64,000 nt of DNA, from assembly GCF_001524445.2 (NCBI RefSeq), contig NZ_CP013417.1, forward strand, positions 558,001-622,000. The letters run 5' to 3'. The DNA comes from Burkholderia savannae. GTDB lineage: Bacteria > Pseudomonadota > Gammaproteobacteria > Burkholderiales > Burkholderiaceae. The notes under the pieces are model-generated. The model was not told where the DNA came from. It ran no database searches and saw only the letters and a list, made by a program, of their open reading frames with translations. Shown here piece by piece: positions 40,893 to 57,034 of this stretch (position 1 is its first letter; each line of letters starts with the position of its first letter). Position numbers and translations under genes: made by a program.

Positions 40893-41160
40893 GAATGACC
40901 TCGGTTTGCAAAGCTGTTCTGGCTCGTGCCGCTGAACCAGTGGTTTTCGATTCTTTCGACGCGCCGGCCTGCCTTGTTTCGTCGGCCGATTTTCAACTGT
41001 CAGGATGATCTTGGCGAATCGCATTTCGCCGTGCGATTCGCCATCGTGCGTGCGATAGTACATTACGCATCCAACGCCAAGCCTTCACGAGCGGCCGCGC
41101 TCGATTGCCGCGCACCCGCTCCAGCGGCCGAGGTACCCAATGGCGTCCTTCAAAGAGCGC
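40893..41160. other. Spacer between kpsC and manC; join between host-like and cassette-like DNA
   Basis: The 268-base gap is long for this packed operon. Base composition changes across it from host-like (manC side) to cassette-like (kpsC side). It may carry a separate manC promoter. No gene is recognised. Confidence 0.45.
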
Positions 41161-43095
41161 TTACCTTCTTTGCACCTGCCGCTGCCGGGCGACTGCCCAA
41201 AGCAAATGCTTGAGTACATTGCGGGTCCAGCGAAATGCTTTGCGAAGGGCTCGATGTGGATCGTCGCGCACATGCTCCAATGGCCGTGCCGCGAGCGGAG
41301 CCAGTTTCCGCACCACTGATTCGGGCGTAACATAAAGCTCAGTGCTCCAATTCCAGTAGATCGGATAACGTAACAGAACGCCGGCGACCAGCATCTCGAG
41401 TGTAAGCGTGCGCCGTCGCCACGGTATCGGCCGGATTGCATCCGACGTGAGTCCCCATCCAGCGTAAAAAGGCAAGCCGTATGTGAAGACTTTTTTTCCA
41501 CGTAGTAGCGCATCGAAACCAGCGAGGGACGATAGCGTGTGCACTTCATCCGCGTACTCGATGAGCGAAAGCACATCAGCATCGGTGTCGACGACGTCGG
41601 CCAAGCGATACGCGTCAACGAGCCCGATTCGGTTGCCGGAAAGTACGTCCGGATGCGGTTTATACACAATGAATCCATCGGGATTACGCGCGCGCACTTC
41701 GCGAAGCAAGGCCTCGGCGGAACCGAACAGGCTCGTGCCGAAGCGGATCGACGCATCGTCGGCCACTTGACCGGGCACGAGCAATAGCGCTCTACCGGCT
41801 GGCGCGCGCCAATTCGGTTTCCGTCGGCCAAGGTTGTATTTCGTGACTCCCGAGCGCACGATCAACTCCCGCAGCGCTTCTGCACGCACGAGTTCAGCAT
41901 TATCAAATTGCGTCTCATTGAGGATGTCCGTCAGATCGCTGGGCCCCCGTGCATCGAAATAGATACCGCGCCGGTCGATGACCTGACTCAGCGGCGCACT
42001 CATGTCCGAGCCCAGGCCCAGTGAGTGGAAAAAGCCATCTTCCATGCGAATGACGCGGGCACCTGGCGCAATGCTTTCGACATGTTTGCTGCCCCACAAT
42101 GCAATCCACTCGTTCGGACTTACCGCGCGAGGCGAATGCGGCCAGCGCAACGTGCCCCCGCCGGCGCTGAGAAATGGTGTCGCAAATGGGCGCTTCCAAA
42201 GTTGAAAGCGCACGCCGGCGATATGAGCGTAATCGCTGAATCGGTCGCGGATCGCGTACTGCAACTCGATGCTGTCAAGCACTTGATCGAGGCTGCACGG
42301 TTCCTCACTGTCTGGGGCCATGTAGTGCGACAGCCGCAGATAGACGGCCTCGAACAGTGCGGCGAGAGTCGGACGCGCGCGGCGCTCGGGCAAAGGAATG
42401 TCATCCTGTGTCAGTCCCCAGCCCGCGTAAAAAGGCTTGCCGAAAACCCGCACTGGTATACCGGCAATCAGGGCCTCCAAACCCTCGAAAGCGTCGACCG
42501 TGTAGACATGGTCAATTTGGCTCAAGACGGAAAAGAAGTGGTATCCCTGTTCAATCTTGCGTGCGCGTTCGGGAAACCGCGGCGTGAGCTGCCACGCCCC
42601 GGACGCGTTGTCCGAAGATGGCCACAGCCACAGTTCTGCGTCAGGATGTTCGTCCCTCGCCGTGGAGAGCATTCGCAGAAATGTTGTGCTCCCCCCGAAG
42701 CCAGCGCATTTCCGCTGATCGATGAGCAGAATTCTGCGCATGCGTGGTACGACCGACAATCCTGCGGGACACCCGCGCCTTACAGTCCGCTCGCGTCCCG
42801 CTCCGGTGAGGACGAGACGCTTCATGAGCCGCACCACATCGGGCGATTCACCCAGCGCCCTGTCATGCGCGAAGAGCCGGTTTAGCGCGTCGCACATCGT
42901 TGTCTGGGGATTGCCGCGATAAGGCGGCGCGAACCACGACAACATCGGCACACCGGCCGCGCCTGTTGACCAGATGGGCCCTGGCATAATCACTACCGCG
43001 TCATCACGAACGATGCGCGCAAGCTTGAGCAGAAGCTTGCCGTGAAAGCGGTCCGTTCGGGTTGCGCAGCCTTGAACGCAAACTGGAATTTTCAT
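41161..43095 (-). CDS. wcbA: Capsule polysaccharide linker synthase KpsC-like (WcbA)
   Basis: A 644-residue KpsC/LipA-type protein. Two related glycosyltransferase domains are visible as a duplication: VFGKPFYAGWGLTQDD at about residue 220 and TYGLPFYAGWGLTSDA at about 560, each after a VHT/VYT-type segment. KpsC proteins are beta-Kdo transferases that build the poly-Kdo linker joining group 2 capsules to phospholipid. KpsS starts that linker and is encoded at 54932. The gene lies 31 bases after the heptose kinase. The symbol follows B. pseudomallei gene order and is an inference. Confidence 0.9.
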   Translation of the reverse strand: MKIPVCVQGCATRTDRFHGKLLLKLARIVRDDAVVIMPGPIWSTGAAGVPMLSWFAPPYRGNPQTTMCDALNRLFAHDRALGESPDVVRLMKRLVLTGAGRERTVRRGCPAGLSVVPRMRRILLIDQRKCAGFGGSTTFLRMLSTARDEHPDAELWLWPSSDNASGAWQLTPRFPERARKIEQGYHFFSVLSQIDHVYTVDAFEGLEALIAGIPVRVFGKPFYAGWGLTQDDIPLPERRARPTLAALFEAVYLRLSHYMAPDSEEPCSLDQVLDSIELQYAIRDRFSDYAHIAGVRFQLWKRPFATPFLSAGGGTLRWPHSPRAVSPNEWIALWGSKHVESIAPGARVIRMEDGFFHSLGLGSDMSAPLSQVIDRRGIYFDARGPSDLTDILNETQFDNAELVRAEALRELIVRSGVTKYNLGRRKPNWRAPAGRALLLVPGQVADDASIRFGTSLFGSAEALLREVRARNPDGFIVYKPHPDVLSGNRIGLVDAYRLADVVDTDADVLSLIEYADEVHTLSSLAGFDALLRGKKVFTYGLPFYAGWGLTSDAIRPIPWRRRTLTLEMLVAGVLLRYPIYWNWSTELYVTPESVVRKLAPLAARPLEHVRDDPHRALRKAFRWTRNVLKHLLWAVARQRQVQRR

Positions 43096-43126
43096 GAAAT
43101 CGACAACGCGCGTCGTGACGACACGT

Positions 43127-44050
43127 TCAGAATGCGTTGAGCTCCTCTAGTGAAATGGGGGCGGTACCTACCTTGCCGACAACGATACCTGCGGCGCGAT
43201 TGGCCACGTGCGCCGCATCCTCCATGCCGCAGCCTGCTCCTAATGCGACAGCCATTGTTGCGATCACGGTATCGCCAGCGCCCGACACATCGTAGACTTC
43301 GCGGGCCTGTGCCGGGATACGAATGTGCCGGTCGTCGATGAATAGACTCATGCCTTCTTCCGATCGCGTGACGAGGAGGGCTTTGAAACCGAGCCGATCA
43401 CGCAGAGCAAATGCCTTGCTTTCGAAGTCGGCCTCCGATGACGGCGTGCCGACAACCATCGCGAATTCCTCACGGTTCGGCGTGAGTAGCGTTGCTCCCT
43501 CGTATGGCGAATAATCCGCCCCTTTCGGATCGACGAGCACGATTTTTCCTTGCTTCCGAGCCATCTGCATCATCGTGCGCAAGTGTGCAAGTCCGCCTTT
43601 CCCATAATCGGAGAATACGACGACACTGTAACCATCCAACGCCGCTTCGAACGACGATATGAGCGGCAACAGCAATTCATGATCCGGCCGCTCTTCAAAG
43701 TCGGCACGCACGACTTGCTGACCCCGTGCGAGCAGACGAAGCTTGATAGTCGTTTGAAACCTTGAATCGCGATGAAAGCCGCATCTGATGTTCGATTTCT
43801 GGAGCAGTTCCACGAGGTCGTCTCCTGCCGCGTCCGCGCCGACTACCGACATGATCATGGTTTTTGCGCCGAGGTTGGCGACGTTGACAGCAACGTTGGC
43901 TGCACCGCCGGGCGTCGTACGAACGTCGCGGACGAGCACGACCGGTACCGGCGCTTCAGGTGAAATGCGCCGTGTGTCGCCGAACCAGTATCGATCGAGC
44001 ATGACATCTCCTGCAACCAGAACCTTTGCTGATGAGAAGTTCGCGGTCAT
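43127..44050 (-). CDS. D-glycero-beta-D-manno-heptose-7-phosphate kinase-like (HldA/RfaE N-domain)
   Basis: A 307-residue PfkB-family sugar kinase matching the N-terminal domain of HldE/RfaE. Residues about 7-48 read KVLVAGDVMLDRYWFGDTRR, then PGGAANVAVNVANLG. The C-terminal active-site motif YDVSGAGDTVIATMA is intact, with the catalytic Asp in GAGD. The nucleotidyltransferase half of HldE is absent, so it is HldA-like. It would make heptose 1,7-bisphosphate for a nucleotide-activated heptose. No gmhA, gmhB or transferase partner lies in the visible locus. The ATG at 44050 overlaps the upstream GT4 stop by four bases. Confidence 0.88.
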   Translation of the reverse strand: MTANFSSAKVLVAGDVMLDRYWFGDTRRISPEAPVPVVLVRDVRTTPGGAANVAVNVANLGAKTMIMSVVGADAAGDDLVELLQKSNIRCGFHRDSRFQTTIKLRLLARGQQVVRADFEERPDHELLLPLISSFEAALDGYSVVVFSDYGKGGLAHLRTMMQMARKQGKIVLVDPKGADYSPYEGATLLTPNREEFAMVVGTPSSEADFESKAFALRDRLGFKALLVTRSEEGMSLFIDDRHIRIPAQAREVYDVSGAGDTVIATMAVALGAGCGMEDAAHVANRAAGIVVGKVGTAPISLEELNAF

Positions 44051-45201
44051 GAGGTCAACTCTGAAATAAGGTGTTCCGCAATCTCAAAATGTTGTTTCCA
44101 CGTTGGCGCGTGGAATCCCGCCAATCGGGCGATCTGCGCTTTGCGTTCTCTGGAGTCGGAGCGCGTGTAAGCGTCAATGCGGTCCGTCCACGCCGGACCG
44201 TCGAGTGGGTCCAGATAGTCGGGAATCTCTCCCGAAATTTCTCGAAACACGTCGAGATTACTGGCAATCACCGGCACACTTGTCGATAGGGCCTCGATAA
44301 GTGGCATGCCGTATCCCTCGACTAATGACGGGAATACAAGCGCTTGTGCGTGATGCAGATATGTGGCTAAGCCCGTGTCATTGCAATGGGTGAGTTCGAT
44401 GACCTTAGAATTCAGGTTTTCGCAACGGTCGAGCATGTCGATTGCGTTTTCGCATTCCCACCCGCGCCGTCCGATGATAACGAGCACCGGCGCGTGTTCT
44501 CCTAAGCGTTCGACCAACCGCTTCCAGACGTGGAGGAGAAACCAATGATTCTTTCGAGCCTCTATTGTGCCTAACATGACGAAGTATGACTCCGCCATCG
44601 GGCGAACCGCACTCGGCTTTGGCAGGCGCGCAGATGCCAGCGGCGCAACGGCGCAGCGCGGAACCGGCTTTTGGACCTTAGCCGCGTACTCTTCCAGTTC
44701 TCGTTGCGTCGCATGCGAGTTTAAAATGAGCCCGACTTTCGGCGATAGCATTGCCTCGAGTCGTCGCCGATGCACTACAGCTTCCCCTGGGCGGCAGTAC
44801 TCGGGATGCGTGACGGGTATCAGGTCATGAAGAAACAGAACCAGCCTCCAATTGCGGCGCCTTGCCTGCTCGACATAGGTGGGCTGATCGAGCCCGCTAT
44901 GGCCGGTATTGATCAATATTGACGCAGTGCTCCCGCGATCCCAATTACATACATACGCACTGCCCAGACAGCGACGAACCATACTGGTAAAACCGCTGTC
45001 GGAACAATGTAGGGAGTCGTACAGACGCTGAGATTGCCGCTCGTTCAAGACGACCCAGCGCCCCGCGAACCTCACCACAGCGCGCGAACGCGCGCGAAAA
45101 TGTTCGACGTACTCCAGGCCTACCCGGTCGACGCCAGTCGGTAGCAATTTTTGAAGGCGGCGATCCACCAGCCTTGTCACATCAATCAATACTGTGTTCA
45201 C
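44047..45201 (-). CDS. Glycosyltransferase family 4 (WcbB-like)
   Basis: A 384-residue GT-B glycosyltransferase. The N-terminal half is variable and contains NSHATQRELEEYA. The C-terminal donor domain begins YFVMLGTIEARKNH and contains HHAQALVFPSLVEGYGMPLIEA with the ExxGxxxxE-type motif. It probably adds a capsule backbone sugar, but donor and linkage cannot be read. The start is a GTG at 45201, 17 bases after the wza-like stop. It overlaps the kinase gene by four bases. Confidence 0.88.
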   Translation of the reverse strand: MNTVLIDVTRLVDRRLQKLLPTGVDRVGLEYVEHFRARSRAVVRFAGRWVVLNERQSQRLYDSLHCSDSGFTSMVRRCLGSAYVCNWDRGSTASILINTGHSGLDQPTYVEQARRRNWRLVLFLHDLIPVTHPEYCRPGEAVVHRRRLEAMLSPKVGLILNSHATQRELEEYAAKVQKPVPRCAVAPLASARLPKPSAVRPMAESYFVMLGTIEARKNHWFLLHVWKRLVERLGEHAPVLVIIGRRGWECENAIDMLDRCENLNSKVIELTHCNDTGLATYLHHAQALVFPSLVEGYGMPLIEALSTSVPVIASNLDVFREISGEIPDYLDPLDGPAWTDRIDAYTRSDSRERKAQIARLAGFHAPTWKQHFEIAEHLISELTS

Positions 45202-45218
45202 GTGAACGCGTCTCCAAA

Positions 45219-46382
45219 CTACCGTGCCGTATTGACCAGGCTGCTTACGGTGAAGATCGACGACGTCAATATGTTGAGAAACTTTTGCAGCTCGGCTGCG
45301 GGCGCGTTGGCCATATAGAGCACGTCCCTGTTGTTGATCGGAAAGTCCTGGGCGACCAGGAAGCTGCGAGGATCCTTCAAATCGAGTCGGTAGATAACGG
45401 GTATCTTGCCTTCAGCGGTATGTGGCCACGACTCGGCCCGTCCGCCAAGGGTACTGGGATCTTCGAAGCGAAATATGAAAAGCCCTTGCGCGTCTGCTCG
45501 CTGATCGTCCGATCCGCCGATTCGCCCAAGCGCTTGCGTCAGGCTGATTCCCTTCGCTTCAAATTCAACTTCCTGATTTTTGCCGGTCGCGCCGAGTGCG
45601 ATGAAGCTCGACGACTGGTAGATAGCGGTTACGACGTCACCCGGCCGGAGCATGATGTTCTGATTCGGATTCCGGATGATCGAATCGAGCGGCATCGAAT
45701 AGTGTTGTCCGCCCCTCGTGAGCTGAATCGTTATTTTGCTCACGGCCTGTTTTACGCCGCCCGCTGCTGCCAATGTATCCAGCAGTCGTTCTCCTTTGGC
45801 AGTCAGCGGCATGCGCGTACTTGCGTTGACTTCTCCAACGACGGTTACGTTCGAGCTGGTGTTTTTTGTGATTCTTACCAGCACTTGCGGCTGATGGGCT
45901 TTGCCGGTCAACCGTCGCGTGATCGCCTCCTCAATCTCGCGCGGAGTCTTGCTGGCGGCTTTCACAGACCCAGCGAAGGGCACGTTGATCGTGCCCTCTG
46001 CATTCACCATCTGCTCCGGAAAAGTCGTGGCCCGGCTCGCACCCATCTCGTCGCCCAGGCTGGCCGACAACTGGCCGAACAGCGTTGCGGGTGGTGCTTC
46101 CCAAATGGATACCTGGAGTACGTCGCCGGGGCCGACCAGATACTCGGCTACAGGTTGGCTGGGAAAAACCTGAGCGAAGGTCGTGTTCTTCCGTTCGCCG
46201 AGCAGGCGTTGGGTGACACTTTCGTTGATGTCGATGACGGGTATCGGGAGTGCCGCCTTCTGCTCAGTGATGTCCTTCTTGCTTGGTCCGGATGTCGGTA
46301 GCCAGGTTGGGGTAGTGCTGCAGCCTCCAGTCATCAATATCAGCACTGTAACGGCAATAGCCCGCATTGACGAAGTTGCCAT
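45219..46382 (-). CDS. wcbC: Capsule polysaccharide export outer-membrane lipoprotein (Wza-like, WcbC)
   Basis: A 387-residue polysaccharide export (PES/SLBB) protein with a lipoprotein signal: ILMTGGC puts the lipid-carrying Cys near residue 21. YLVGPGDVLQVSIWEAPPAT begins the export domain, followed by SLBB segments (VTVVGEVNAS, MLRPGDVVTA). Such proteins form the outer-membrane channel, with the KpsE-type protein as periplasmic partner. It lies 12 bases after the methyltransferase stop. Confidence 0.92.
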   Translation of the reverse strand: MATSSMRAIAVTVLILMTGGCSTTPTWLPTSGPSKKDITEQKAALPIPVIDINESVTQRLLGERKNTTFAQVFPSQPVAEYLVGPGDVLQVSIWEAPPATLFGQLSASLGDEMGASRATTFPEQMVNAEGTINVPFAGSVKAASKTPREIEEAITRRLTGKAHQPQVLVRITKNTSSNVTVVGEVNASTRMPLTAKGERLLDTLAAAGGVKQAVSKITIQLTRGGQHYSMPLDSIIRNPNQNIMLRPGDVVTAIYQSSSFIALGATGKNQEVEFEAKGISLTQALGRIGGSDDQRADAQGLFIFRFEDPSTLGGRAESWPHTAEGKIPVIYRLDLKDPRSFLVAQDFPINNRDVLYMANAPAAELQKFLNILTSSIFTVSSLVNTAR

Positions 46383-46394
46383 AATTGCGATGTA

Positions 46395-47429
46395 TCAGAG
46401 CGGCTTTTGGGCGAATAAACCGAAACAAGTAGACGGGAAGCCGTCGACAACAAGTTTCAAGTGCGGGTACTGGGGAAACTTTTGTGTGAGATATCCGGGG
46501 TCTCCTGGAAACGGCGGCACATCGAGAAACCAGTCTACCGGGTGGTCGCCGGTCTCGTAGGAAACAGGTGGAACGTCAAAGCCTTGTCGGGCAAGGCGCT
46601 CCCGAAGACGCTCGAAGTCGCTCCGCCTGAAAAGTACTGTGCCCCAGTTGTCGATAGTGTCGGAATCGCTCGCAAAGTTAAATTCTGTCGTGTGGACCGC
46701 AATACCTCCCGGCTTTAAAACTTTCAGCGAATTCTCAACAAACGACAACCCGCGCTCGATAGAGCCAAGATGCTCAAACGCGCACATAGACCAGCAGAAA
46801 TCAAATTGTCCGTGCAGGGAAGACGGTATGTCGTTCATATCGACAAACTGAAGTGAAACGTGCTTGTCAAACGCGTTCCGTGACACCAAGTCCGGTTTCC
46901 AGAGAAGGTCCAAACTGGATGCGTGCTGCGCAGTGTCTTTCCAGCCAGAAGCCGCAGCCGCGTGTGGCATGAGGTCGGTAGCCACTACTTCGACACCCTT
47001 GCTGGCGAAGAGTGAAGGAAGCGGTTCTTCGCCACATGCAAAGCCAAGTCCCTTCACGCCGTGTCGCAGAAGATCGAATGAGTGCAGCGCTGATACGACA
47101 TACGCGAGTTCCCAGACCTTTCTGTGAAGAATTGGTTCGATATGTAGTTCTTGGCAAACTGAACGAAACCAGATTTGATCGAAATCTTTCAGTTCCGTTG
47201 CTTTCCAGTTCCTAGGGAATGGGGATGCGTCGACGCTAATTGATTTGCGCGAAGAATCCTTCTCCAGAAGGAGTCGTGCAAGTAGATACCCATAAACCTT
47301 TAAATTCCATCGAATTGCAAGGTCATTTCGCGTTATTTCGGCTAGCGAATTTATGTTGGGCTGCCCGTTTCGGGTGACGAGCATTACCAATTCTCTTAGC
47401 TGGGTTTCGTCAAGGCTCTTGTCTGTCAT
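46395..47429 (-). CDS. SAM-dependent methyltransferase of the capsule cassette
   Basis: A 344-residue class I methyltransferase. The glycine motif is a variant, GLGFACGEEPLP, at about residue 130, followed by the acidic VVATDLMP. FDFCWSMCAFEHLGSIERGL and LKVLKPGGIAVHTTEFNF give the post-motif segments. About 115 residues precede the fold, with no match I recognise. It probably methylates a capsule sugar or the chain end. That is inference from position between the GT9 and wza-like genes. Confidence 0.82.
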   Translation of the reverse strand: MTDKSLDETQLRELVMLVTRNGQPNINSLAEITRNDLAIRWNLKVYGYLLARLLLEKDSSRKSISVDASPFPRNWKATELKDFDQIWFRSVCQELHIEPILHRKVWELAYVVSALHSFDLLRHGVKGLGFACGEEPLPSLFASKGVEVVATDLMPHAAAASGWKDTAQHASSLDLLWKPDLVSRNAFDKHVSLQFVDMNDIPSSLHGQFDFCWSMCAFEHLGSIERGLSFVENSLKVLKPGGIAVHTTEFNFASDSDTIDNWGTVLFRRSDFERLRERLARQGFDVPPVSYETGDHPVDWFLDVPPFPGDPGYLTQKFPQYPHLKLVVDGFPSTCFGLFAQKPL

Positions 47430-47580
47430 GGATAATGATTCTCAATTTCAAATTAAAGAAGTAAATCTGATGCGTGGTCAAGTAATTTCGGTCACTTGAG
47501 AATTTGATTGTTCAACGGACGATTGATTTATAAATGTGTAGTCATCGATGCTCGAGTGGTTTCGCAATATGTATGTACTT

Positions 47581-49530
47581 TTATTCTCGGCCATAGAGAA
47601 TCCAGTTCCGAATATGAGTCAATACATTAGTTCTCGGATTTGGCCGATCGAAGTTTGCTTTTAGGGCCGTTAAAATCTGTTCTGTAGCGATGGAGCGCAA
47701 ACATATACTCTCGCGGCCCCTCGTTAGATGACAAGGCTTGTGTTCGTTGCGCCAACACGGGGAACACGGGAATTCCGATTTCTTGGGGGTTATGTATTTT
47801 ACATGAGGATAATGACGACAGAAAACGCGCCCGCTCGTAGGGCCGAAGATTGCGACAGTTTTGACGTCCAGCGCAGCGGATAGATGAACGAACGATGAGT
47901 CTACGGCAACAAGTCGCTGGCACTTGGTAAGTAGGGCTACGCTTTTCCTTAATGGCATTAATATCTTATGAATATTGTAAGAAACGTAACCAGAGATGGT
48001 TTCATGGTGAAAAATCAGAACGCAATGATCCTGGCTCAAGCGCTTTGCCAAGTTTTCCATATCCGGCCAATTCTTGTAGCTGTCAACGGAAAAGGGCTGA
48101 ATTCCTACGACGGGCAGGCCATCAGGGTTAATTTGACTCAGATACAACGTAGCCCATTCCGTTTCTTCGGTTGTAACTTGATAGGACGGCAAAAAACCAA
48201 CCGAGCGTCTGACATATGATTTTGATACACCCATGGCGCGTGCAAAAATTTCAATGCGACTACTCCGAACGTTCGGGTATTGTCTTGCCTCGATGCGTCC
48301 CGCCGGGCAATCCGTAAGGTTGATCCAGCGGTTATACTGTGCTAAGTCCACGTTGTCGCTGTTTACATCAATAATTCGTACCCCTTTGAGTCCCTCGAAG
48401 ATCGGGTGAAACGATTTCGGCACGGCAAAATCGATCTGTGCTCTGGGATATCTTTTAACGAGAGCTCGAAGACCCGCAGTCATCATGACCACGTCCCCGA
48501 TTCCACCCATGGCCCGCGTGATCAAAACTCGGCGTTTCGGCTTTGATGCAAGGAGGGGAATATGCCACCGCCAGCCGGTCTGGTCAGTCCTATGCTGAAC
48601 ACCGGTCGGCCCGGACATCGACGACGATCTGAACGAATGAAGCAGATGTAACACACCCAAATAGATGCCCCATAGAGGCTTATGAGCGCGGAGAGGTCGC
48701 AACACCGGATTGGAGCCTGCGAGCCTCGCGACATTAGCTAGGAGAAATGGCAGGCGGTAATGTAATGGAACTTCGTTGCGAAGGGAGGCGCGAAAGGCGC
48801 CCCGGTAGGTCTTAACGATTTGCGAAATAAAGTCGATGCGAAGCTGTTCGTTCGAATGGATGCTGCAAATTCCCTTCCAGAGGACAGTTTTGTATTCGTC
48901 GAGGTGGTTGCTTGCCGCAAGGATATACATTAATTTTTGGTACAGCTTCGGTAATTCCCGACGGTTAGGCAATAGGTAAGGCTTGCGTACTAACCTTAAT
49001 GCAACCTCCGATGCATGTTCATGCCGCCCAGCTATCGCGTCGAGATATGCGCGATGTAAGCTGATCGATTGAGCAATGCGAGGAAATTTCACCGCACCCG
49101 TTCGTAGTGCGATATCGACGACAGCACTCGCTTCGGGCAAGTAATTGCGGTCAGTGAATGCGCCGGCAAGTTGGTTGAGGCCTCGAAACCATTCCTCACT
49201 GTAGCCGATAAGACCTTGAGATAGGCACGACAGGTCACTCAGTAAATCTTTTGTGAATTCGTTTGCTTTTGCAAAATCTAGTTGTAGCAAATCTGTCAAG
49301 TGCTGGTCAACGCAGCATGTGACAGAAAAGAAAATGTAACGGTCGTGCAGAGCTTGCCTACGCTCTTGCTTATTTAATTTCAGCCACGCATGAAAAACGG
49401 GCGCATGGTGATTTTCGTAGGCTATTCCGCTTAGATCGAGCGTGATCATCGAGTCGATCGTCTCGTTCCCTCGCTCATTCCCGGACGTAATGGGTAGGCT
49501 TGCGACTACCACTGATGTTGATGTAGTCAT
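47581..49530 (-). CDS. Glycosyltransferase family 9 (heptosyltransferase-like) with N-terminal helical domain
   Basis: A 649-residue protein with two parts. Residues 1 to about 300 are helical with no clear family, possibly TPR-like. From about 335 a GT9 domain begins (RVLITRAMGGIGDVVMMTAG). It ends with the donor-site segment VAVDSSFVHLSAALDVKTVA and FGPTSGRV, then a Cys-rich stretch (PCSPCWRNEHKPC). GT9 enzymes usually transfer heptose from ADP-heptose, which fits the HldA-like kinase in the same operon. The gene is markedly AT-richer than the core genome. It starts eight bases after kpsT. Confidence 0.84.
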   Translation of the reverse strand: MTTSTSVVVASLPITSGNERGNETIDSMITLDLSGIAYENHHAPVFHAWLKLNKQERRQALHDRYIFFSVTCCVDQHLTDLLQLDFAKANEFTKDLLSDLSCLSQGLIGYSEEWFRGLNQLAGAFTDRNYLPEASAVVDIALRTGAVKFPRIAQSISLHRAYLDAIAGRHEHASEVALRLVRKPYLLPNRRELPKLYQKLMYILAASNHLDEYKTVLWKGICSIHSNEQLRIDFISQIVKTYRGAFRASLRNEVPLHYRLPFLLANVARLAGSNPVLRPLRAHKPLWGIYLGVLHLLHSFRSSSMSGPTGVQHRTDQTGWRWHIPLLASKPKRRVLITRAMGGIGDVVMMTAGLRALVKRYPRAQIDFAVPKSFHPIFEGLKGVRIIDVNSDNVDLAQYNRWINLTDCPAGRIEARQYPNVRSSRIEIFARAMGVSKSYVRRSVGFLPSYQVTTEETEWATLYLSQINPDGLPVVGIQPFSVDSYKNWPDMENLAKRLSQDHCVLIFHHETISGYVSYNIHKILMPLRKSVALLTKCQRLVAVDSSFVHLSAALDVKTVAIFGPTSGRVFCRHYPHVKYITPKKSEFPCSPCWRNEHKPCHLTRGRESICLRSIATEQILTALKANFDRPNPRTNVLTHIRNWILYGRE

Positions 49531-49538
49531 TGTCGTAA

Positions 49539-50213
49539 TTACCCTAGTCCGAGGATATGCTGGCTGTAGTGCTCATATGCATCGGATACATCGTCGAAGC
49601 GTATGATCGTACCCTGGTCGAGAACGGCGGCGCTGTTGCAGAATTTCATAATAAATCCGACATCGTGAGAAACGATGATGAATGCTCGATCTTTGCGTTT
49701 TTCGAACAGCTCATGAACGCACTTCTCATGAAATCTGGCATCACCAACTGCAATAATTTCGTCAATTAAATAGCAATCGAATTCGATGGCGAGTGAGAGT
49801 GCAAACGCAAGGCGCGCTTGCATACCGCTTGAATATGTTTTGACTGGCTCGCGCAAATACTTGCCAAGCTCCGCAAATTCCTCTACAAAGCCGCGAATTG
49901 ATTCATGATCGATGTTATAAATTCGAGAGATAAAACGAAGATTGTCGAGGCCGGTCAAGCTTCCCTGAAAGCCGCCTGCAAAAGCCAGGGGCCAGGATAC
50001 GGCCATCTCTCGCTGAATCAAGCCGCTGTCAGGAGATTCCTGGCCGCTGATCAAGCGGATGAGCGTCGATTTGCCGGCCCCGTTTTTCCCGAATATGCCT
50101 ATTTTTTCGCTGCGTTCAATAGTTAAACTTATTCTGTTGAGCACCGTATGGCTACCGGTCCTTGACTTATATCGCTTCGTAACGTTTCGCAGGGAGAGCA
50201 TCTTGACGCCCAT
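49539..50213 (-). CDS. kpsT: Capsule ABC transporter, ATP-binding protein (KpsT/Wzt-like)
   Basis: A 224-residue ATPase of the polysaccharide exporter class. It has Walker [15 protein letters not shown], signature [15 protein letters not shown], Walker [14 protein letters not shown] and the switch His in IIVSHD. There is no C-terminal carbohydrate-binding extension, so it belongs to the KpsT (group 2 capsule) rather than the long Wzt type. It lies three bases after kpsM. An internal ATG (residue 5, [11 protein letters not shown]) is an alternative start. Confidence 0.94.
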
Positions 50214-50216
50214 AAG

Positions 50217-51020: not shown

Positions 51021-52203
51021 GGTGCTCGTTGATGCCGTGAACCAAGAGCATCAATATCCCCCAAATTATCAATGAGATAACCAAGGTAATAACGATATTG
51101 GTGAGGCGTCGGGGTTCGAGAGATGCATCTGGAAAGCTGGGGCGCGCAATTCTCTCAAGATAAAGTTGCTTGCGTTGCGCTTCGTTGCGAGCCTGCTCGA
51201 GCGTACTCATGGCGCTGGCCAACATCTTGTCCGCAAACTCCTTGTCAAGTTCCAAACGTTGATATTCGGACGCTTTGCTTGCCAGCGACCGGTCTGACGC
51301 TCCGGCGATGCGTGCTGATTCAGTGTTGATGGCTTCAGTGAGCAACTGTGCTCGTTGCCTAAAAGCGGGGAGCTGCGGGCTATCTTTGGCAAGTTTCTCT
51401 AGTAGGGAAATCTGCGCCTTGGTAGAGATCAGTTCATCTTGCAGTTTTGCGACTTGCTGGAGGGGGATGCCCGATTGCTTTTCGGGGTCCATGACGCCTT
51501 GCTTGTCTCGATAGTGAGCCAAGGCTACCGCAGCGGCCTTCGATCTTGCCTCTGCCCCTGTGACTTCTCCAGAGGCGAACCGAATCATGTCAAGGCGTGC
51601 GCGCTCGTTTAGCTTGTTGACGAGTGCTTCGCTCATCTCAAGCAAGCGCTCATTTAACGCATGCGCGTCTTTGGCCGTAAAGGCGCGTGCTTTCAAGGTC
51701 AAGATCGAAGAGGTCGATTCGACTTGTACATCGACCATCTTTTGGTAATAGCGATAGAACTTCTCGTAGCTATCGTTTCGGCCGAACGCGTCGAAGCGGC
51801 TCACGATGTCGACAGACGGTGCACCGAAGGCGGCCTTGATATGTAGATCCCGATCTGCCGAGATGAGCGCATCACGAGAAAGAATGAACTCCTGGATCGT
51901 ATAGGCGTCATCCTGCGATCGGCTGAAACCTGCCTGGCTTAGAAAGAAACCAAACGGTGATATGCCTTGACGGTCAGGGCTGCGAACCAAAAATTTGGCC
52001 TCGGAGACATAGATGTTTGACGCGATCAGGCCATAATAGATGATGGAAACTATGGTCGGCAGTACGACGAGGATCAGAAACAGGGTATTTACTCTACTGA
52101 TCATGCCAAGAGTGTGTTGCAGTTTTATGAAGCTTGCTCGAGACCGCTTCAGGAGGATCTGATTTTCCAAAGCTCTTTCCAGTTTTAACTGAAGATGCTG
52201 CAA
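51013..52203 (-). CDS. wcbD: Capsule export inner-membrane/periplasmic protein (KpsE-like, WcbD)
   Basis: A 396-residue KpsE/BexC/CtrB-type polysaccharide co-polymerase. Membrane helix one is near residues 40-60 (TLFLILVVLPTIVSIIYYG). A long periplasmic coiled-coil region follows, and a second helix lies at about 365-385 (NIVITLVISLIIWGILML). It couples the ABC exporter to the outer-membrane channel. The only usable start before an in-frame stop is a TTG at 52203 with no Shine-Dalgarno. It is the first gene of the minus-strand capsule operon. Confidence 0.9.
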   Translation of the reverse strand: MQHLQLKLERALENQILLKRSRASFIKLQHTLGMISRVNTLFLILVVLPTIVSIIYYGLIASNIYVSEAKFLVRSPDRQGISPFGFFLSQAGFSRSQDDAYTIQEFILSRDALISADRDLHIKAAFGAPSVDIVSRFDAFGRNDSYEKFYRYYQKMVDVQVESTSSILTLKARAFTAKDAHALNERLLEMSEALVNKLNERARLDMIRFASGEVTGAEARSKAAAVALAHYRDKQGVMDPEKQSGIPLQQVAKLQDELISTKAQISLLEKLAKDSPQLPAFRQRAQLLTEAINTESARIAGASDRSLASKASEYQRLELDKEFADKMLASAMSTLEQARNEAQRKQLYLERIARPSFPDASLEPRRLTNIVITLVISLIIWGILMLLVHGINEHHE

Positions 52204-52975
52204 ATATATTAGCTAGGTACCCATCCGTTCGCTACGCTCCAGCGCTGCAAAGCAGGTATTCCGTGGAGGCCGTCCGTCTTTGCGTGGACATTGTGCTTTC
52301 AATGCCTTCAGCCACCCGGCTATCCGAGGTGTGGGCGAGACGTTGGGCGCAGGATGTGCGCAGCTAGCCATAGGTCGGACGGATCAAATGCTAGATCGAC
52401 GATGGCCTCGATCTGCGAGTCGACTCGGCTTTTCCAGGAGCGTTTGGTGCAGCAACAGCATCCTGAATGCGGTAGGCCCAGTCGCAGGGCAAGACTGCCA
52501 GAGGGCGGAGTTGTCTGACGTCGTCGAGTTGGTTGGGCAATTCAAGCATATCGACCTTGGTGCGGGCAACTTTCTGTACCTCGGGCATAGCGATCTCCTG
52601 ACAGTTTCGCCGCACGTTTTGTCGCGAAGGGCATAGCTGAAGCGGCAATGCGTGCCAGTGCGACAAACTAACACTAACAATTTGCCGGATTGTGTAGACA
52701 AATCCGGCGCACCCCAAACGAAGACTTCCAATGTGCGCGCTGCTGCAATCTTTTCCATGCCGGCCCATCGGAAAGGAAAGAGTTGCGTCTCGAAGAGAAG
52801 CAGTATAAACACGAAAATTATGTAATCGGCAAGCTTCTTCATGCAGTTTCGGCGGTTCGCATTATGAATTTCATACGCTGGACTGGCTACTGTTGATCTA
52901 TACTCCGTACGAACCCGCGCGCACTGGCGGCGTCTTCAAGTCCAGGAGCGCCGTTGCTGGAGCAGCTGTTCTTCC
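52204..52975. other. Divergent capsule promoter region, possibly with gene remnants
   Basis: About 770 bases between kpsE and the nested insertion sequences. Before the IS elements came in, it was continuous with the start of kpsS and so held the promoters of both capsule operons. A 65-codon frame with a good ribosome site (52391-52588) and a longer frame beginning MKKLADYIIFVFILLLF (minus, from 52842) suggest decayed coding DNA. I do not recognise either. Confidence 0.5.
52391..52588 (-). CDS. Small hypothetical protein
   Basis: A 65-codon frame starting at an ATG with CAGGAG seven bases upstream (MPEVQKVARTKVDMLELPNQ...). I do not recognise it. The first 45 residues look protein-like and the last 20 (PGKAESTRRSRPSS) look random, so it may be a truncated remnant. 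It lies upstream of, and parallel to, kpsE. Confidence 0.3.
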   Translation of the reverse strand: MPEVQKVARTKVDMLELPNQLDDVRQLRPLAVLPCDWAYRIQDAVAAPNAPGKAESTRRSRPSSI

Positions 52976-52978
52976 TTA

Positions 52979-53836
52979 GAGCGTGTTATGCACTTTCAAA
53001 AATACGGAACGGTATGAGTCAGCATCAAAGTGACGAAGACAACGAAATGCAATCCGGCGAGGGTTTCGGGCAAGCGCTCGTAGTCGCGCGCGAGCCTGCG
53101 AAAACGGTTGACCCAGCCGAAGCTACGTTCGACCACCCAGCGCCGTGGCAGAAGCACGAAGCCCTTCTTCGCCTCGGACAATTTGATGACCTGCAACTCT
53201 ATGCCTTCGTCACGTGCTGCCTGCGCCGCGTGTTCGCCGGTATAGCCTTGGTCAGCAAAAGCGAGCTTCACCGTCTGGCCCGTAGCCTGCTGAACCTGCC
53301 GCGCCAGTTGTTGCACCTGAGTGCGCTCCTGCTCGTTAGCCGGCGTGATGTGCACCGCCAGCAGATGGCCCAAGGTGTCGACAGCCATGTGCACTTTGCT
53401 ACCGCGTTTGCGTTTGTAGCCGTCATATCCCGCGCGCGGACCGCTCTCGCACGTCGATTGCAACGTCCGCCCATCGAGAATCACCGCGCTGGGTTGGCCC
53501 TGACGTCCATGTGCCAGACGAATGATCGAACGCAGATCGTCTGTCATCGCCTCAAAGCAGCCTGTGCGCAGCCATCGTTGGGTTTGCTGGTACACGGCCT
53601 CCCACGGCGGGAAGTTCGTCGGCAACAGCCGCCACGGTGCGCCTGCACGGGCCAACCAGCGCAACGCGTTGTAAAGCTCGCGCAATTCATATTGCCGTTG
53701 TGGGGCCTCTTCCTTCATCAGCGTCAGATACGGCACGACGAAGCTCCATTCTTCGTCCGTTACGTCACTTGGGTAGGGTCTGCGTTTTTCCATCTCCCTT
53801 GGACGGTGGCGCCGATGAAAAGTGCATAACACGCTC
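52979..53836 (-). mobile_element. IS5-family insertion sequence, IS427/IS402-like
   Basis: An 858-base element with inverted ends GAGCGTGTTATGCACTTT (left, 52979-52996) and its complement at the right (53819-53836), flanked by a TA dinucleotide on both sides (52977-52978 and 53837-53838). TA duplication and size fit the IS427 subgroup of IS5. It encodes one intact transposase and sits inside the TTAG target duplication of the next element. Confidence 0.9.
52996..53793 (-). CDS. IS5-family transposase (IS427-like)
   Basis: A 265-residue DDE transposase. The start is the ATG at 53793 (MEKRRPYPSDVTDEEW). LYNALRWLARAGAPWRLLP is the N-terminal DNA-binding part. Catalytic regions are SAVILDGRTLQST (first Asp), KLAFADQGYTG (second Asp) and RRWVVERSFGWVNRFRRL (Glu). 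No frameshift or stop is present, so it looks active. It ends at the left inverted repeat. Confidence 0.92.
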   Translation of the reverse strand: MEKRRPYPSDVTDEEWSFVVPYLTLMKEEAPQRQYELRELYNALRWLARAGAPWRLLPTNFPPWEAVYQQTQRWLRTGCFEAMTDDLRSIIRLAHGRQGQPSAVILDGRTLQSTCESGPRAGYDGYKRKRGSKVHMAVDTLGHLLAVHITPANEQERTQVQQLARQVQQATGQTVKLAFADQGYTGEHAAQAARDEGIELQVIKLSEAKKGFVLLPRRWVVERSFGWVNRFRRLARDYERLPETLAGLHFVVFVTLMLTHTVPYF

Positions 53837-53839
53837 TAG

Positions 53840-54899
53840 GGAAACGCTGAATTATCCAGCTCGGCGGTCATCGTGGAGGCCGCCCGGGACGTTGTGATGT
53901 GAGGTTGATGGAACGGATCGATAGTGATGAAACGGCAGATCAGCTTTGCAGAAGCGGAAAGCGCGGGCAAGAAGCGTTGTGACCAAGCGTCAGCGCTTCC
54001 TGACTGAGATGGAGAATGTCGTGCCGTGGCCGCGTTTGATCTCGGCGATCGCGCCGTATTACCCGAAAGGCGAACGAGGTCGGCCGCCGATCGGTCTGGA
54101 ACGCATGCTGCGAATCTACTTTTTGCAGCAGTGGTATGGCCTGTCTGACGAGATCGGCATTTCGCTGTGCGAGCGTGGACTGCTGATGAAGGAAGGCACG
54201 CTGGTCGACGCGACGATCATCGAAGCGCCGCCGTCGACCAAAAACGCTGAGAAGACTCGAGATCCGGAAATGCACCAAACGAAGAAAGGTAACGAATGGC
54301 ACTTCGGCATGAAGGCGCACATCGGCGTCGATGCGAATTCGGGACTGATTCACAGCGTGGTCGGCACATCTGCCAACGTATCCGATGTCTCACAAGCCCA
54401 TGCGTTGCTGCACGGGCATGAAGAGGAAGCGTTCGGCGATGCCGGCTACGTCGGCGTAGACAAGCGCGACGAAATGAAGGGCAAGTCGGTGAAGTGGAGC
54501 GTGGCGGCCAAGCGAGGCAAGATCAAGGCCATGCAGGACGGTCTGCTGAAGGAACTGGTGATCGCGGCTGAACGGACCAAGGCGCAGATTCGTGCGCGGG
54601 TCGAGCATCCGTTCCATATCGTCAAAAACCTGTTTCGTCATCGCAAGGTGCGCTACAAGGGGCTGGCCAAGAACACGGCGCAGTTGTTCAGCCTGTTCGC
54701 ATTGGCGAACCTGGTGATCGCGCGAAATCGGCTGCACTCGGCACATGACGGCAATCCGTCTTGTGTGTGAAAAATGCGAGAAGTGAGGCCCGTTTCCGCA
54801 TCGAACTCACCAAAATGAGCCTCACTTCGCTTCGCCATCCGAAAATGACGACCCGGCGCTTCCGATAACCTTCGCGCTGGGCCTTTGATCAGCGTTTCC
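53840..54899 (+). mobile_element. Decayed IS5-group insertion sequence with TTAG target duplication
   Basis: Ends GGAAACGCTGA (53840-53850) and TCAGCGTTTCC (54889-54899) are perfect 11-base inverted repeats. The right flank is TTAG (54900-54903). The left TTAG is split by the IS427-like element: T-TA at 52976-52978 and the final G at 53839. At 1,060 bases it is shorter than the usual 1.2 kb, in keeping with an internal deletion in its transposase. Confidence 0.85.
53927..54773 (+). pseudogene. IS5-group transposase, frameshifted and internally deleted
   Basis: The start ATG at 53927 opens MKRQISFAEAESAGKKR. An extra T at about 53978 then shifts the frame. The rest of the protein continues in the next frame from 53979 (VTKRQRFLTEMENVVPW) to the stop after 54770. 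A second lesion removes about 50 residues: QQWYGLSDE (near 54150) runs straight into LCERGLLMKEG. The DDE catalytic segments (TLVDATIIEAPPSTKN, the SDVSQAHALLHG region, RVEHPFHIVK) remain. The element cannot make a normal transposase by itself. Confidence 0.82.
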
Positions 54900-54931
54900 T
54901 TAGAGGTTTTCTTAATCTTCGTGCTCTTTCG

Positions 54932-56224
54932 ATGAGACGCTCGTTCCTCGTGTTACAGGGGCCCGCATCGCCATTTTTTGAGGTGTTATGCGCTATGCTG
55001 CTCGCCCGTCGCCATATTGTCCGGCGTGTCAACTTTTGCGGTGGCGATGTTGCGTATTCTGGCAAGGAGCCCGCGTGGAACTATGCCGGGGCGTCAAGTG
55101 ACCTTGCGTTTTGGTATAGCGATGTGCTGAGCACCGGGGACTTCAGCGACGTGCTTATGTTTGGCGACTGCCGTGCGATTCATCGGCCAGTCCACGTGGT
55201 TGCGCAATCGCTCGGCGTCAGGGTGCACGTATTCGAAGAAGGCTATGTGCGGCCGAATTGGATTACGCTGGAACCGTTTGGCGTCAATGGCCGCTCTATG
55301 CTGCCTCTTGATCCGACGTGGTATAGGGAACGGCGCGAGACCAATCCTCCGGGCCAGCCAACCGGGTATAGCCTCCAGATCCGAGCATGGCACGACATTC
55401 ACTACCGAATGGCCAACGCGCTCCATGCATGGCGGTTCCCGAATTATCGGAGCCATCGTCCATATAACGGATTCGTCGAATATGCAGGCCTCGCCAATCG
55501 TTTTGCCCGGCTCAGCAGGTACAAGGCGGAGGCGCGTCGAGTTGCGTCAGCGCTTGTCACTGAGCGGCGCCCCTACTATCTATTCCCGCTGCAGCTGAAT
55601 TCGGATAGTCAGATCATCGAGCATTCGCCGTTCTCTGGGATTCGCGAGGTCATCAGCAAGGTATTGCATTCGTTTGCGGATCATGCGCCATCCGATGCGC
55701 TGCTTGTAGTCAAAAATCATCCGCTCGATACCGGCCTGATAGGCTCTCATCGCCAAGTCCGTTCCCTTGCAGGACAACTAGGGATGGCGGATCGTGTGCG
55801 CTATATAGAGGCCGGCCACCTGCCGACCCTGCTCGAGCGCGCGCGCGGTGTAGTTGTCGTCAACAGCACGGTGGGTTTGTCCGCACTCCACCACGATCGA
55901 CCGCTGATGACACTTGGAGCGGCGGTCTATTCGATGCCGGGCATGACGTGGCAGGGGAGTCTGGACGACTTCTGGCAACGGGCTGAGAGCCCAGACGCGG
56001 CACTGTATCAGGCGTTCATCGACTATGTGATTCGCCACACACAAATCAACGGCGATTTCTACAGTCGCTCGGGCATCGCGATGGCCGCAGCCGGTGCGGT
56101 TAGCCGTCTTGAGGCGGCTACGTCTCCGTTTGCTGTCGGACAGACGTCCCTATCCTCCGAATCAAGCATTTTGCCCCAGCAGCATATGCTGCCTCCCCAA
56201 TTGAAAGAGGCCGCCCGTGGCTAG
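54932..56224 (+). CDS. wcbO: Capsule linker-initiating Kdo transferase KpsS-like (WcbO)
   Basis: A 430-residue KpsS-family protein. Near the start it has FLVLQGPASPFFEVLCAMLL, typical of KpsS. YVRPNWITLEP lies near residue 107-117, RRPYYLFPLQLNSDSQI in the middle, and KNHPLDTG with GVVVVNSTVGLSALHHDRPL in the donor domain. KpsS adds the first beta-Kdo to lyso-phosphatidylglycerol, and KpsC (encoded at 41161) extends it. The ATG is only 28 bases from the IS target duplication, with no ribosome site that I can see, so expression may be altered. Composition is cassette-like. Confidence 0.88.
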   Translation: MRRSFLVLQGPASPFFEVLCAMLLARRHIVRRVNFCGGDVAYSGKEPAWNYAGASSDLAFWYSDVLSTGDFSDVLMFGDCRAIHRPVHVVAQSLGVRVHVFEEGYVRPNWITLEPFGVNGRSMLPLDPTWYRERRETNPPGQPTGYSLQIRAWHDIHYRMANALHAWRFPNYRSHRPYNGFVEYAGLANRFARLSRYKAEARRVASALVTERRPYYLFPLQLNSDSQIIEHSPFSGIREVISKVLHSFADHAPSDALLVVKNHPLDTGLIGSHRQVRSLAGQLGMADRVRYIEAGHLPTLLERARGVVVVNSTVGLSALHHDRPLMTLGAAVYSMPGMTWQGSLDDFWQRAESPDAALYQAFIDYVIRHTQINGDFYSRSGIAMAAAGAVSRLEAATSPFAVGQTSLSSESSILPQQHMLPPQLKEAARG

Positions 56225-56248
56225 AGAACTCGCAGGATACGTCGGCCG

Positions 56249-57034
56249 ATGACTGCGTGTTCTTCTCGCTGCATAGTGATCACCGGCGCCAGTGCAGGGC
56301 TCGGCGAAGCGCTCGCCAGGTGTTATGCCGAACGTGGTGTTGTGTTGGGGCTTGTGGGGCGGAACGCCACGCGTCTCGGAGTCTGCGCGCAGCACTGTCG
56401 TGACGCCGGGGCTGAGGTAGTCACTGCGCTCCTCGACGTGCGAGATTCCGAGAAGACGCGGGAGTGGTTATCGCGCTTCGACCAATCGCATCCAATTGAT
56501 CTCTTAATTGCGAACGCAGGTGTTGCGAGTACCCTTGCATCGTCTAGCGATTGTGAAGACTTTGCACGAATAAGCGTGGTCATGGACACGAATTTCTACG
56601 GCACGATGCACACGATTTTGCCGGTTCTTGAGTGCATGCGTATACGCGGGCGTGGCCAAATCGCGCTCATCAGCTCGCTCGCCGCGCTGCGCGGCATGGC
56701 GATTTCGCCCGCCTATTGCGCGAGCAAGGCGGCGATCAAGGCGTATGCCGATTCGGTCCGTCCGTTGCTCGCGCGCGACGGCGTCAGGCTGTCCGTGATC
56801 CTGCCGGGCTTCGTGAAGACGGCGATGAGCGACGTATTCCCGGGCGACAAGCCGTTCCTGTGGTCCGCCGACAAGGCGGCCGCCCACATCCGTCGCAAGC
56901 TTGCCGTCGGGCGCGCGGAAATCGCGTTTCCGGGGCTGCTCGCGTTCGGCATGCGTCTGCTGCAATTGCTGCCTGCGGCGCTGGCGGACGCGATCCTCGG
57001 CAGGCTGTCGTATTTGCCGCGCGAGGAGCGCTAG
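56249..57034 (+). CDS. wcbP: Short-chain dehydrogenase/reductase (WcbP)
   Basis: A 261-residue SDR. The cofactor motif VITGASAGLGEALA (TGxxxGxG), the NAG motif in LIANAGVAS, the catalytic Ser in LISSLAA and the YCASKAA dyad are all intact. It may modify a capsule sugar or the acyl product of the PKS. The substrate is unknown. Codon use changes sharply inside the gene near base 56640. The first half resembles the AT-richer cassette and the second half the GC-rich core. It starts 24 bases after kpsS. Confidence 0.88.
   Translation: MTACSSRCIVITGASAGLGEALARCYAERGVVLGLVGRNATRLGVCAQHCRDAGAEVVTALLDVRDSEKTREWLSRFDQSHPIDLLIANAGVASTLASSSDCEDFARISVVMDTNFYGTMHTILPVLECMRIRGRGQIALISSLAALRGMAISPAYCASKAAIKAYADSVRPLLARDGVRLSVILPGFVKTAMSDVFPGDKPFLWSADKAAAHIRRKLAVGRAEIAFPGLLAFGMRLLQLLPAALADAILGRLSYLPREER

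What the first reader, a model, noticed from the sequence alone, without database searches (positions are those of the whole stretch)
41161..56650. Swapped serotype cassette between conserved capsule flanks
Seen: manC, the second half of wcbP, wcbQ and wcbR share the strong GC-rich codon bias of the core genome. Everything from kpsC to the first half of wcbP is visibly AT-richer with relaxed codon use, most of all the methyltransferase and GT9 genes. Known: in the pseudomallei group manC-wcbA and wcbO-wcbR border the 6-deoxyheptan capsule genes. Inference: homologous recombination in the conserved ends has replaced the middle with a different polymer module (GT4, GT9, methyltransferase, HldA-type kinase), giving a hybrid capsule of unknown structure.
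Basis: partly seen in the sequence, partly recalled or inferred. Interest (0 to 1): 0.8.

Follow-up and report, generated by a model that had tools for sequence, protein, structure and literature searches.

The report
Foreign capsule cassette between conserved flanks
A bacterium of the Burkholderia pseudomallei group has had the middle of its capsule gene cluster replaced by a cassette from outside the group, a kind of surface-coat switching already known at this chromosomal site; the cassette type itself may be undescribed and may make a heptose-based coat.

Summary
Observation confirmed: GC3 falls from 0.88 (manC) to 0.52-0.67 (kpsC to kpsS) and rises from 0.61 to 0.88 inside wcbP. The swap has independent support. 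Flank genes match relative G017 at 88-96% nt, while the middle has saturated dS and lacks three genes. The right junction lies at 56,670-56,677 in wcbP, at the same offset in B. mayonis (G021), which shares the cassette. manC and wcbQ track the species; kpsC and the kpsT-M-E-S block reject that placement (p 3.5e-5 or less).

Corrections: composition alone proves little, since AT-rich capsule genes are usual at this locus. The GT4 occurs in 24 of 24 loci read. The replaced stretch includes the Kdo transferases and the export set. The resident type was probably the GC-rich Gmd/FkbM capsule of G017. The exchange is not recent. Its source is mixed: kpsC and wcbP N-half point to Cupriavidus/Ralstonia, the export block to other Burkholderia. 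Two IS elements precede kpsS. Exchange at this site was published in 2010. The polymer (HldA-type kinase, GT9, methyltransferase; perhaps methylated heptose) is inferred only.

The parts
39462..40892 (-). manC, mannose-1-phosphate guanylyltransferase/mannose-6-phosphate isomerase; conserved left flank, GC3 0.88
   Evidence: TIGR01479 706.6 bits over cut-off 372.95; groups with the pseudomallei-complex rows, 100/99
40903..41135 (.). left junction zone upstream of manC: identity to G017 falls from 0.94 to 0.72 at 40,903-40,929; homology is lost near 41,135 (read by eye from the alignment)
41161..43095 (-). kpsC (Kdo transferase, Capsule_synth regions); first cassette gene
   Evidence: PF05159 153.2 bits; in one group with Cupriavidus/Ralstonia and environmental rows, 100/100
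43127..44050 (-). HldA-type heptose-7-phosphate kinase, second copy in the genome
   Evidence: TIGR02198 386.1 bits over cut-off 345; other copy at C1:992593
44047..45201 (-). GT4 glycosyltransferase, present in every locus read
   Evidence: PF00534; 24 of 24 loci
45219..46382 (-). Wza/KpsD-type outer-membrane exporter; on the same strand as kpsC here and in G021, on the opposite strand in the 22 other loci
   Evidence: PF02563, PF22461
46395..47429 (-). class I SAM methyltransferase, cassette-specific among the loci read
   Evidence: PF08241; 2 of 24 loci; model pLDDT 83.9, Foldseek rows are methyltransferases and related folds
47581..49530 (-). GT9 glycosyltransferase with a ~270-residue helical N-terminal part
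49539..50213 (-). kpsT, ABC transporter ATPase
   Evidence: PF00005
50217..51020 (-). kpsM, ABC transporter membrane protein
   Evidence: PF01061
51013..52203 (-). kpsE, inner-membrane export protein
   Evidence: TIGR01010 358 bits, below its cut-off 437.5; no Pfam family
52977..54907 (.). insertion holding two IS5-family elements between the divergent operons, not present in the G021 gap; ends about 25 bp before the kpsS start
54932..56224 (+). kpsS (Kdo transferase), cassette side
   Evidence: PF05159 325.9 bits; trees; AU tests
56249..57034 (+). wcbP, SDR; mosaic gene, N-half cassette side, C-half resident; junction 56,670-56,677 (about codon 141)
57036..58571 (+). wcbQ, sulfatase-family protein; conserved right flank
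   Evidence: PF00884; groups with the complex 100/99
58568..64000 (+). wcbR, polyketide synthase (runs to 66,196, beyond the window); conserved right flank
   Evidence: PF00109, PF00698, PF14765 in the part inside the window

Best explanation
An ABC-transporter-dependent (Kps) capsule locus whose middle was replaced, in a lineage ancestral to or shared by this strain and B. mayonis, by a cassette from outside the pseudomallei complex. Shown: conserved manC and wcbQ-wcbR ends; a sharp crossover inside wcbP that leaves a mosaic wcbP; a replaced set that includes the Kdo transferases KpsC and KpsS, the KpsT-KpsM-KpsE-Wza export chain and a GT4, plus three genes rare at this locus (HldA-type kinase, GT9, methyltransferase). 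The source is mixed: kpsC and the N-half of wcbP group with Cupriavidus/Ralstonia, the export block distantly with a type seen in four other Burkholderia. Inferred: the crossover was homologous recombination in conserved wcbP sequence, because the donor carried a wcbP relative. Inferred: KpsS and KpsC build the Kdo linker on lipid; the conserved GT4 adds an early or common residue; the kinase raises the supply of activated heptose; the GT9 transfers heptose as main-chain polymerase, with its helical N-terminal part perhaps gripping the primer; the methyltransferase modifies the chain; KpsM/T/E and Wza export it; resident WcbP (C-half), WcbQ and WcbR act on it or its anchor as before. The 6-deoxyhexose chemistry suggested by Gmd in the G017 type would thus be exchanged for heptose chemistry.
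For: GC3 shift at the same place as the sequence junction. Flanks G000-G017 dS 0.09-0.28 against 1.7 to saturation in the seven shared capsule genes. Site patterns 88 against 1 and 2 for G000+G021 in 56,240-56,740, and no clear excess in the flanks. Same junction offset in G021. Core tree puts G000, G017 and G021 together 100/100 with G042/G038 next. kpsC: one clade with G017, B. thailandensis, B. savannae and B. oklahomensis rejected, p 8.0e-6, and with G042/G038 added p 3.5e-5; placed with Cupriavidus/Ralstonia and environmental rows 100/100. kpsT-M-E-S block rejects the trio, p 2.9e-7, and the five-genome clade, p 4.4e-9. wcbP N-half joins Cupriavidus basilensis 98/92; wcbP C-half is nearest G021, G017, G042, G038, though its five-genome group has only 58/85. 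A 266-bp, 68%-identical manC 5' fragment stands between manC and kpsC in G021, as a donor remnant would. Kinase over the HldA cut-off; GT9 fold like ADP-heptosyltransferases.
Against: Single-gene tests are mixed. The trio clade is not rejected for GT4 (p 0.215), wza (0.301), wcbP N-half (0.119), nor for kpsC-GT4-wza concatenated without outside genera (0.219); the five-genome clade is not rejected for kpsS (0.088) or wcbP N-half (0.138). kpsE and the concatenated kpsT-M-E-S block place G000+G021 with Burkholderia G027, G055, G007 and G001 (100/99), on long branches, and kpsS joins C. basilensis at only 64/40, so an origin outside Burkholderia is shown for kpsC and the N-half of wcbP alone. No donor cassette with the same gene set was found; listed KpsC relatives beyond B. 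mayonis are about 63% identical at most. The left junction is blurred. Heptose and methylation have no chemical evidence. The IS block may silence the locus in this strain.
Confidence: 0.78

Rival explanations
1. No swap: the capsule genes are simply AT-rich and fast-evolving, inherited vertically with relaxed codon use.
For: AT-rich capsule genes are common at this locus in the genus; dS G000-G021 in the middle is up to about twice that of the flanks, as relaxed codon bias could give.
Against: G017, as near as G021 in the core, has saturated dS and a different gene set in the middle with intact flanks; sharp junction at 56,670-56,677; kpsC clade rejected.
Confidence: 0.03
2. The reverse direction: the AT-rich cassette is ancestral in the complex, and G017, B. 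thailandensis, B. savannae and B. oklahomensis were converted to a genus-typical GC-rich cassette.
For: The core tree weakly joins G000 with G017, not with G021 (88/80), so a single gain in G000+G021 is not the simplest history; flank site patterns are nearly even. In kpsC, GT4 and wza trees G017 groups with G032, not with its sister species G042/G038, so the left half of G017's locus has its own history of exchange.
Against: In the kpsS, kpsT and kpsE trees and the kpsT-M-E-S block G017 groups with G042/G038, as vertical descent predicts; G017's capsule GC3 equals its flanks; G000/G021 kpsC sits with Cupriavidus/Ralstonia.
Confidence: 0.13
3. Two independent acquisitions of related cassettes by this strain's lineage and by B. 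mayonis, or transfer between them, rather than common descent of the cassette.
For: dS 0.31-0.57 in the cassette against 0.15-0.31 in the flanks; near-trichotomy of the three species.
Against: Same junction offset in wcbP in both; no clear excess of G000+G021 shared sites in the flanks, as a recent transfer between them would leave.
Confidence: 0.2
4. A defective locus: the IS block in front of kpsS has turned the capsule off, so the cassette has no present function in this strain.
For: A 1,931-bp insertion ends about 25 bp before the kpsS start and is not in the G021 gap.
Against: All cassette reading frames are open; a consensus scan found one promoter-like site against 0.9 expected, so it says nothing either way.
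Confidence: 0.2

Closest known systems
B. thailandensis EPS / B. pseudomallei-like CPS exchange (Sim et al. 2010, PMC2945791; abstract and passages seen)
   Same: A whole polysaccharide cluster exchanged at this site of chromosome 1, with lower G+C in the incoming cluster (59.2%).
   Different: There the boundaries were placed at BTH_I1324 and BTH_I1343, so the manC and wcbT ends went with the exchange, and the incoming cluster is the 6-deoxyheptan CPS. Here manC and wcbQ-wcbR are kept, the right junction is inside wcbP, and the incoming cassette has GT9, methyltransferase and HldA-type kinase.
G017-type capsule locus (KpsC clade with B. thailandensis, B. savannae, B. oklahomensis)
   Same: Same flanks, same Kps export and Kdo-transfer framework, same GT4 next to kpsC.
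   Different: Middle has Gmd, a further SDR, three more GT4s and an FkbM methyltransferase; GC3 0.79-0.92 in the genes shared with the window; wza on the other strand.
   Same: Carry the kinase (68 and 71%) and the GT9 (51 and 50%) between manC-kpsC and kpsS; the G238 stretch read ends in kpsS.
   Different: No match to the methyltransferase in these stretches; different kpsC; wza, kinase and GT9 on the other strand.
E. coli group 3 Kps cluster recombination (PMC10433991, abstract and outline seen)
   Same: Serotype region exchanged between Kps ends; the ends themselves can vary.
   Different: Here the exchanged stretch takes the kps end genes with it, and the retained ends are manC and wcbQ-wcbR.

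Membership tests
ABC-transporter-dependent (Kps) capsule locus | KpsC and KpsS (Capsule_synth) | tested here: met
   PF05159 153.2 and 325.9 bits
ABC-transporter-dependent (Kps) capsule locus | KpsM/KpsT ABC transporter and Wza/KpsD exporter | tested here: met
   PF01061, PF00005, PF02563
ABC-transporter-dependent (Kps) capsule locus | KpsE-type inner-membrane protein | tested here: inconclusive
   TIGR01010 near-full-length match, 358 bits, below the curated 437.5
ABC-transporter-dependent (Kps) capsule locus | surface polysaccharide on a Kdo-linked lipid | not testable with these tools
   needs capsule chemistry
B. pseudomallei CPS I (6-deoxyheptan) locus | heptose-modifying set between the ends (GHMP-type WcbL kinase, GmhA, WcbM, WcbN, WcbK; names recalled) | tested here: not met
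   no GHMP kinase, SIS or nucleotidyltransferase family among the ten kpsC-to-kpsS genes scanned
B. pseudomallei CPS I (6-deoxyheptan) locus | manC and wcbP-wcbQ-wcbR at the borders | tested here: met
   gene families; no B. pseudomallei sequence was compared directly
G017-type (Gmd/FkbM) capsule | Gmd and FkbM methyltransferase in the middle | tested here: not met
   absent from the ten cassette genes; present in G017
HldA heptose-7-phosphate kinase | TIGR02198 over its cut-off | tested here: met
   386.1 over 345; catalytic residues not checked
GT9 glycosyltransferase | PF01075 over its cut-off and a GT9 fold | tested here: met
LPS core heptosyltransferase I/II | TIGR02193/TIGR02195 over cut-off | tested here: not met
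   39.5 of 185.3 and 46.5 of 134.6 bits
Autotransporter heptosyltransferase (TibC type) | N-terminal beta-barrel and four-Cys iron finger (Cys 339, 342, 358, 370 in TibC; PMC4358343, passages seen) | tested here: not met

The most novel reading that the evidence does not exclude
The capsule locus of the pseudomallei complex carries old capsule alleles, partly from other genera, that persist through speciation (trans-species polymorphism): this strain and B. mayonis keep one foreign heptose-type allele with the same mosaic wcbP junction, while their equally close relative G017 keeps the other. The GT9 with a helical N-terminal part, whose relatives often share contigs with its methyltransferase partner in unrelated bacteria, would be a mobile capsule-polymerase module.
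Probability: 0.3. Interest if true: 0.55.

Novelty: new member of a known kind. Interest (0 to 1): 0.42.

Why it matters
It adds a further capsule type, of outside origin, to a chromosomal site that in this group holds either the B. pseudomallei virulence capsule or other polysaccharides, and gives near-base-level evidence for how types are exchanged. Capsule-based tests and vaccines for this group assume which species carry which capsule, so knowing how far the site is interchangeable across species is useful. The chimeric wcbP and the GT9-methyltransferase pair give concrete objects for capsule biochemistry.

Tried and rejected
Iron-finger heptosyltransferase reading of the GT9: four Cys invariant in the 76 rows aligned (the window protein and 75 of 190 listed-or-counted hits), but similar Cys-rich ends occur in other GT9 proteins, and the N-terminal part is helical, not a beta-barrel; rejected. 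TPR reading of that N-terminal part: TPR families match at most 2 of 76 members each (best 7e-4) and not the window protein; left open. No separate fold match of the N-terminal part was listed, which the tool says is barely a test. A plasmid-borne donor: no GT9 match in PLSDB; methyltransferase, kpsC and wza relatives there are all under 60% identical. A phage relative of kpsS: one 25% partial match. No tRNA gene and no Rfam family at gathering score in the window, so no tRNA-linked island inside it. Literature on B. mayonis or B. savannae: 16 papers in the listing, none read; the listings showed no paper on this cassette, so absence from print is only as wide as those searches. The mixture model was not used in the protein trees (LG+G4 only); rows L041-L045 (duplicates or long branches) were dropped before the AU tests; an attempt to scan L141/L100 stretches for families failed and was not repeated.
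Full report
What is there. The window is G000:C1:558001-622000 of a 7.43-Mb genome. The locus runs manC (39,462-40,892, -), kpsC, an HldA-type kinase, a GT4, a Wza/KpsD-type exporter, a methyltransferase, a 649-residue GT9, kpsT, kpsM and kpsE (all -), then two IS5-family transposases, then kpsS, wcbP, wcbQ and wcbR (all +). wcbR ends at 66,196, past the window.

Composition. GC3 is 0.835-0.917 in eight upstream genes, 0.876 in manC, 0.52-0.67 in the ten cassette genes, 0.609 then 0.876 in the two halves of wcbP, and 0.816 in wcbQ. On the codon index wcbP's second half and wcbQ (0.55) lie between cassette (0.21-0.34) and manC (0.735). The control weakens composition as proof: across the loci read, capsule genes at this site are usually AT-richer than manC (kpsS 0.57-0.86 in Burkholderia), and only 5 of 24 genomes, G017 among them, are GC-rich in every gene measured.

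Comparison with relatives. Of 65 Burkholderia genomes, 41 have a wcbQ match. I read the locus in 24 of these 41, G042 and G038 in two contigs each. manC, kpsC and the GT4 are present in 24 of 24; the kinase in 4, the GT9 in 3, the methyltransferase in 2 (G000 and G021). In the whole-genome search 7 of 65 have a methyltransferase relative at E 1e-20, five of them at 40-45% identity. wza lies on the strand opposite to kpsC in 22 of 24, and on the same strand only in G000 and G021. G021 (contig 3,838,800, named B. mayonis in protein records) has the same cassette at 83-91% nt without the IS elements. G017 has mutL, dedA, mscS and manC at 92-96% nt and wcbQ and wcbR at 89%, with one flank gene (GATase) matched only in two pieces (95 and 88%), but a different middle: no kinase, methyltransferase or GT9 match, and the shared capsule genes at 43-64% protein identity.

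Junctions. A two-segment fit of G000 against G017 puts the right junction at 56,672 (56,670-56,677), identity 0.63 before and 0.91 after; G021 against G017 gives the same offset, 432 (427-437). This is about codon 141 of wcbP, so the NAD-binding half is cassette-type and the catalytic half resident (the SDR motif placement is recalled). On the left, identity drops from 0.94 to 0.72 at 40,903-40,929, upstream of manC, and homology ends near 41,135 by eye. In G021 a 266-bp, 68%-identical extra manC 5' fragment stands between manC and kpsC, as expected of a remnant of a donor's own manC; the shorter manC-kpsC gap of G000 gave no match to it.

Phylogeny. Six core genes from 19 genomes unite G000, G017 and G021 (100/100) with G042/G038 as sister (100/100); G000+G017 has only 88/80. 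Shared derived sites in the flanks are nearly even: G000+G017 / G000+G021 / G017+G021 are 80/54/59 on the near left, 145/155/115 on the far left, and 93/109/99 on the right after the first window; in 56,240-56,740 they are 1/88/2. manC and wcbQ place G000 with the complex (100/99 each). AU tests of one clade for {G000, G021, G017}: kpsC 0.045, GT4 0.215, wza 0.301, kpsT 0.011, kpsM 3.0e-7, kpsE 4.6e-4, kpsS 4.1e-4. With G042 and G038 added: kpsC 0.0022, GT4 0.021, wza 0.012, kpsT 0.028, kpsM 0.0061, kpsE 2e-39, kpsS 0.088. wcbP N-half: 0.119 and 0.138, not rejected; wcbP C-half: trio 0.413, and the five already together at 58/85. kpsT-M-E-S concatenated: 2.9e-7 and 4.4e-9; kpsC-GT4-wza concatenated: 0.219 and 7.6e-4.

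Source. With 20 of the 120 listed KpsC relatives added by hand, G000 and B. mayonis join Cupriavidus, Ralstonia and environmental rows (100/100), while B. thailandensis, B. savannae, B. oklahomensis and G017 form a separate clade (100/100); holding them together is rejected (8.0e-6, or 3.5e-5 with G042/G038). wcbP N-half joins Cupriavidus basilensis (98/92) and kpsS joins it weakly (64/40). Against a single outside donor, kpsE and the kpsT-M-E-S block join Burkholderia G027, G055, G007 and G001 (100/99, long branches), so the cassette is probably itself a mosaic. The resident type has a mixed history too: on the right G017 groups with its sister species G042/G038 (kpsS, kpsT, kpsE and the block), on the left (kpsC, GT4, wza) with G032.

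Age. dS between G000 and G021 is 0.31-0.57 in the cassette and 0.15-0.31 in the flanks; between G000 and G017 it is 0.09-0.28 in the flanks and 1.7 to saturated in the seven shared capsule genes. The cassette was therefore not passed recently between G000 and G021.

IS block. The kpsE-kpsS gap matches G021 up to 52,976 (73%) and again from 54,908 (94%); the 1,931 bases between hold two IS5-family elements with 25-bp and 17-bp inverted ends, each with one full copy in the genome. The block ends about 25 bp before kpsS and may change expression of kpsS-wcbR.

Known or new. Sim et al. 2010 (PMC2945791, abstract and passages seen) described replacement of the B. thailandensis EPS cluster by a B. 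pseudomallei-like CPS, with boundaries at BTH_I1324 and BTH_I1343 and lower G+C in the incoming cluster; PMC10913486 (passages seen) describes B. pseudomallei-like CPS genes in B. cepacia. The process is thus known; this cassette type, its mixed outside source and the wcbP mosaic were not met in my searches (listed under Tried and rejected). I rate it a new member of a known kind.

Noticed in passing
window 52,977-54,907: Two adjacent IS5-family elements, one with a 25-bp and one with a 17-bp inverted end, sit between the divergent capsule operons and end about 25 bp before kpsS; not in the B. mayonis gap.
   Followed up: partly
L067 6285-6548 (G021): A second, partial, 68%-identical manC 5' fragment lies between manC and kpsC in B. 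mayonis.
   Followed up: partly
G000:C1:632000-646000 (L006, L007): A second polysaccharide locus downstream, with a Wza-like gene (25% to the capsule wza-type gene) and a further Capsule_synth match (72.6 bits at C1:639950).
   Followed up: no
G003, G012, G060: These genomes have a wcbQ relative (60-62%) but no full KpsS match, so WcbQ may act outside Kps capsules too.
   Followed up: no
G026, G037, G058: wcbQ is matched in two separate pieces in these genomes.
   Followed up: no
G014:C5:2253147-2253932: A 40%-identical relative of the cassette methyltransferase lies next to manC, outside the capsule stretch read.
   Followed up: no
G017 locus (L069, L070): Left capsule genes of G017 group with G032 and right ones with G042/G038, a sign that its own locus is also a mosaic.
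   Followed up: partly
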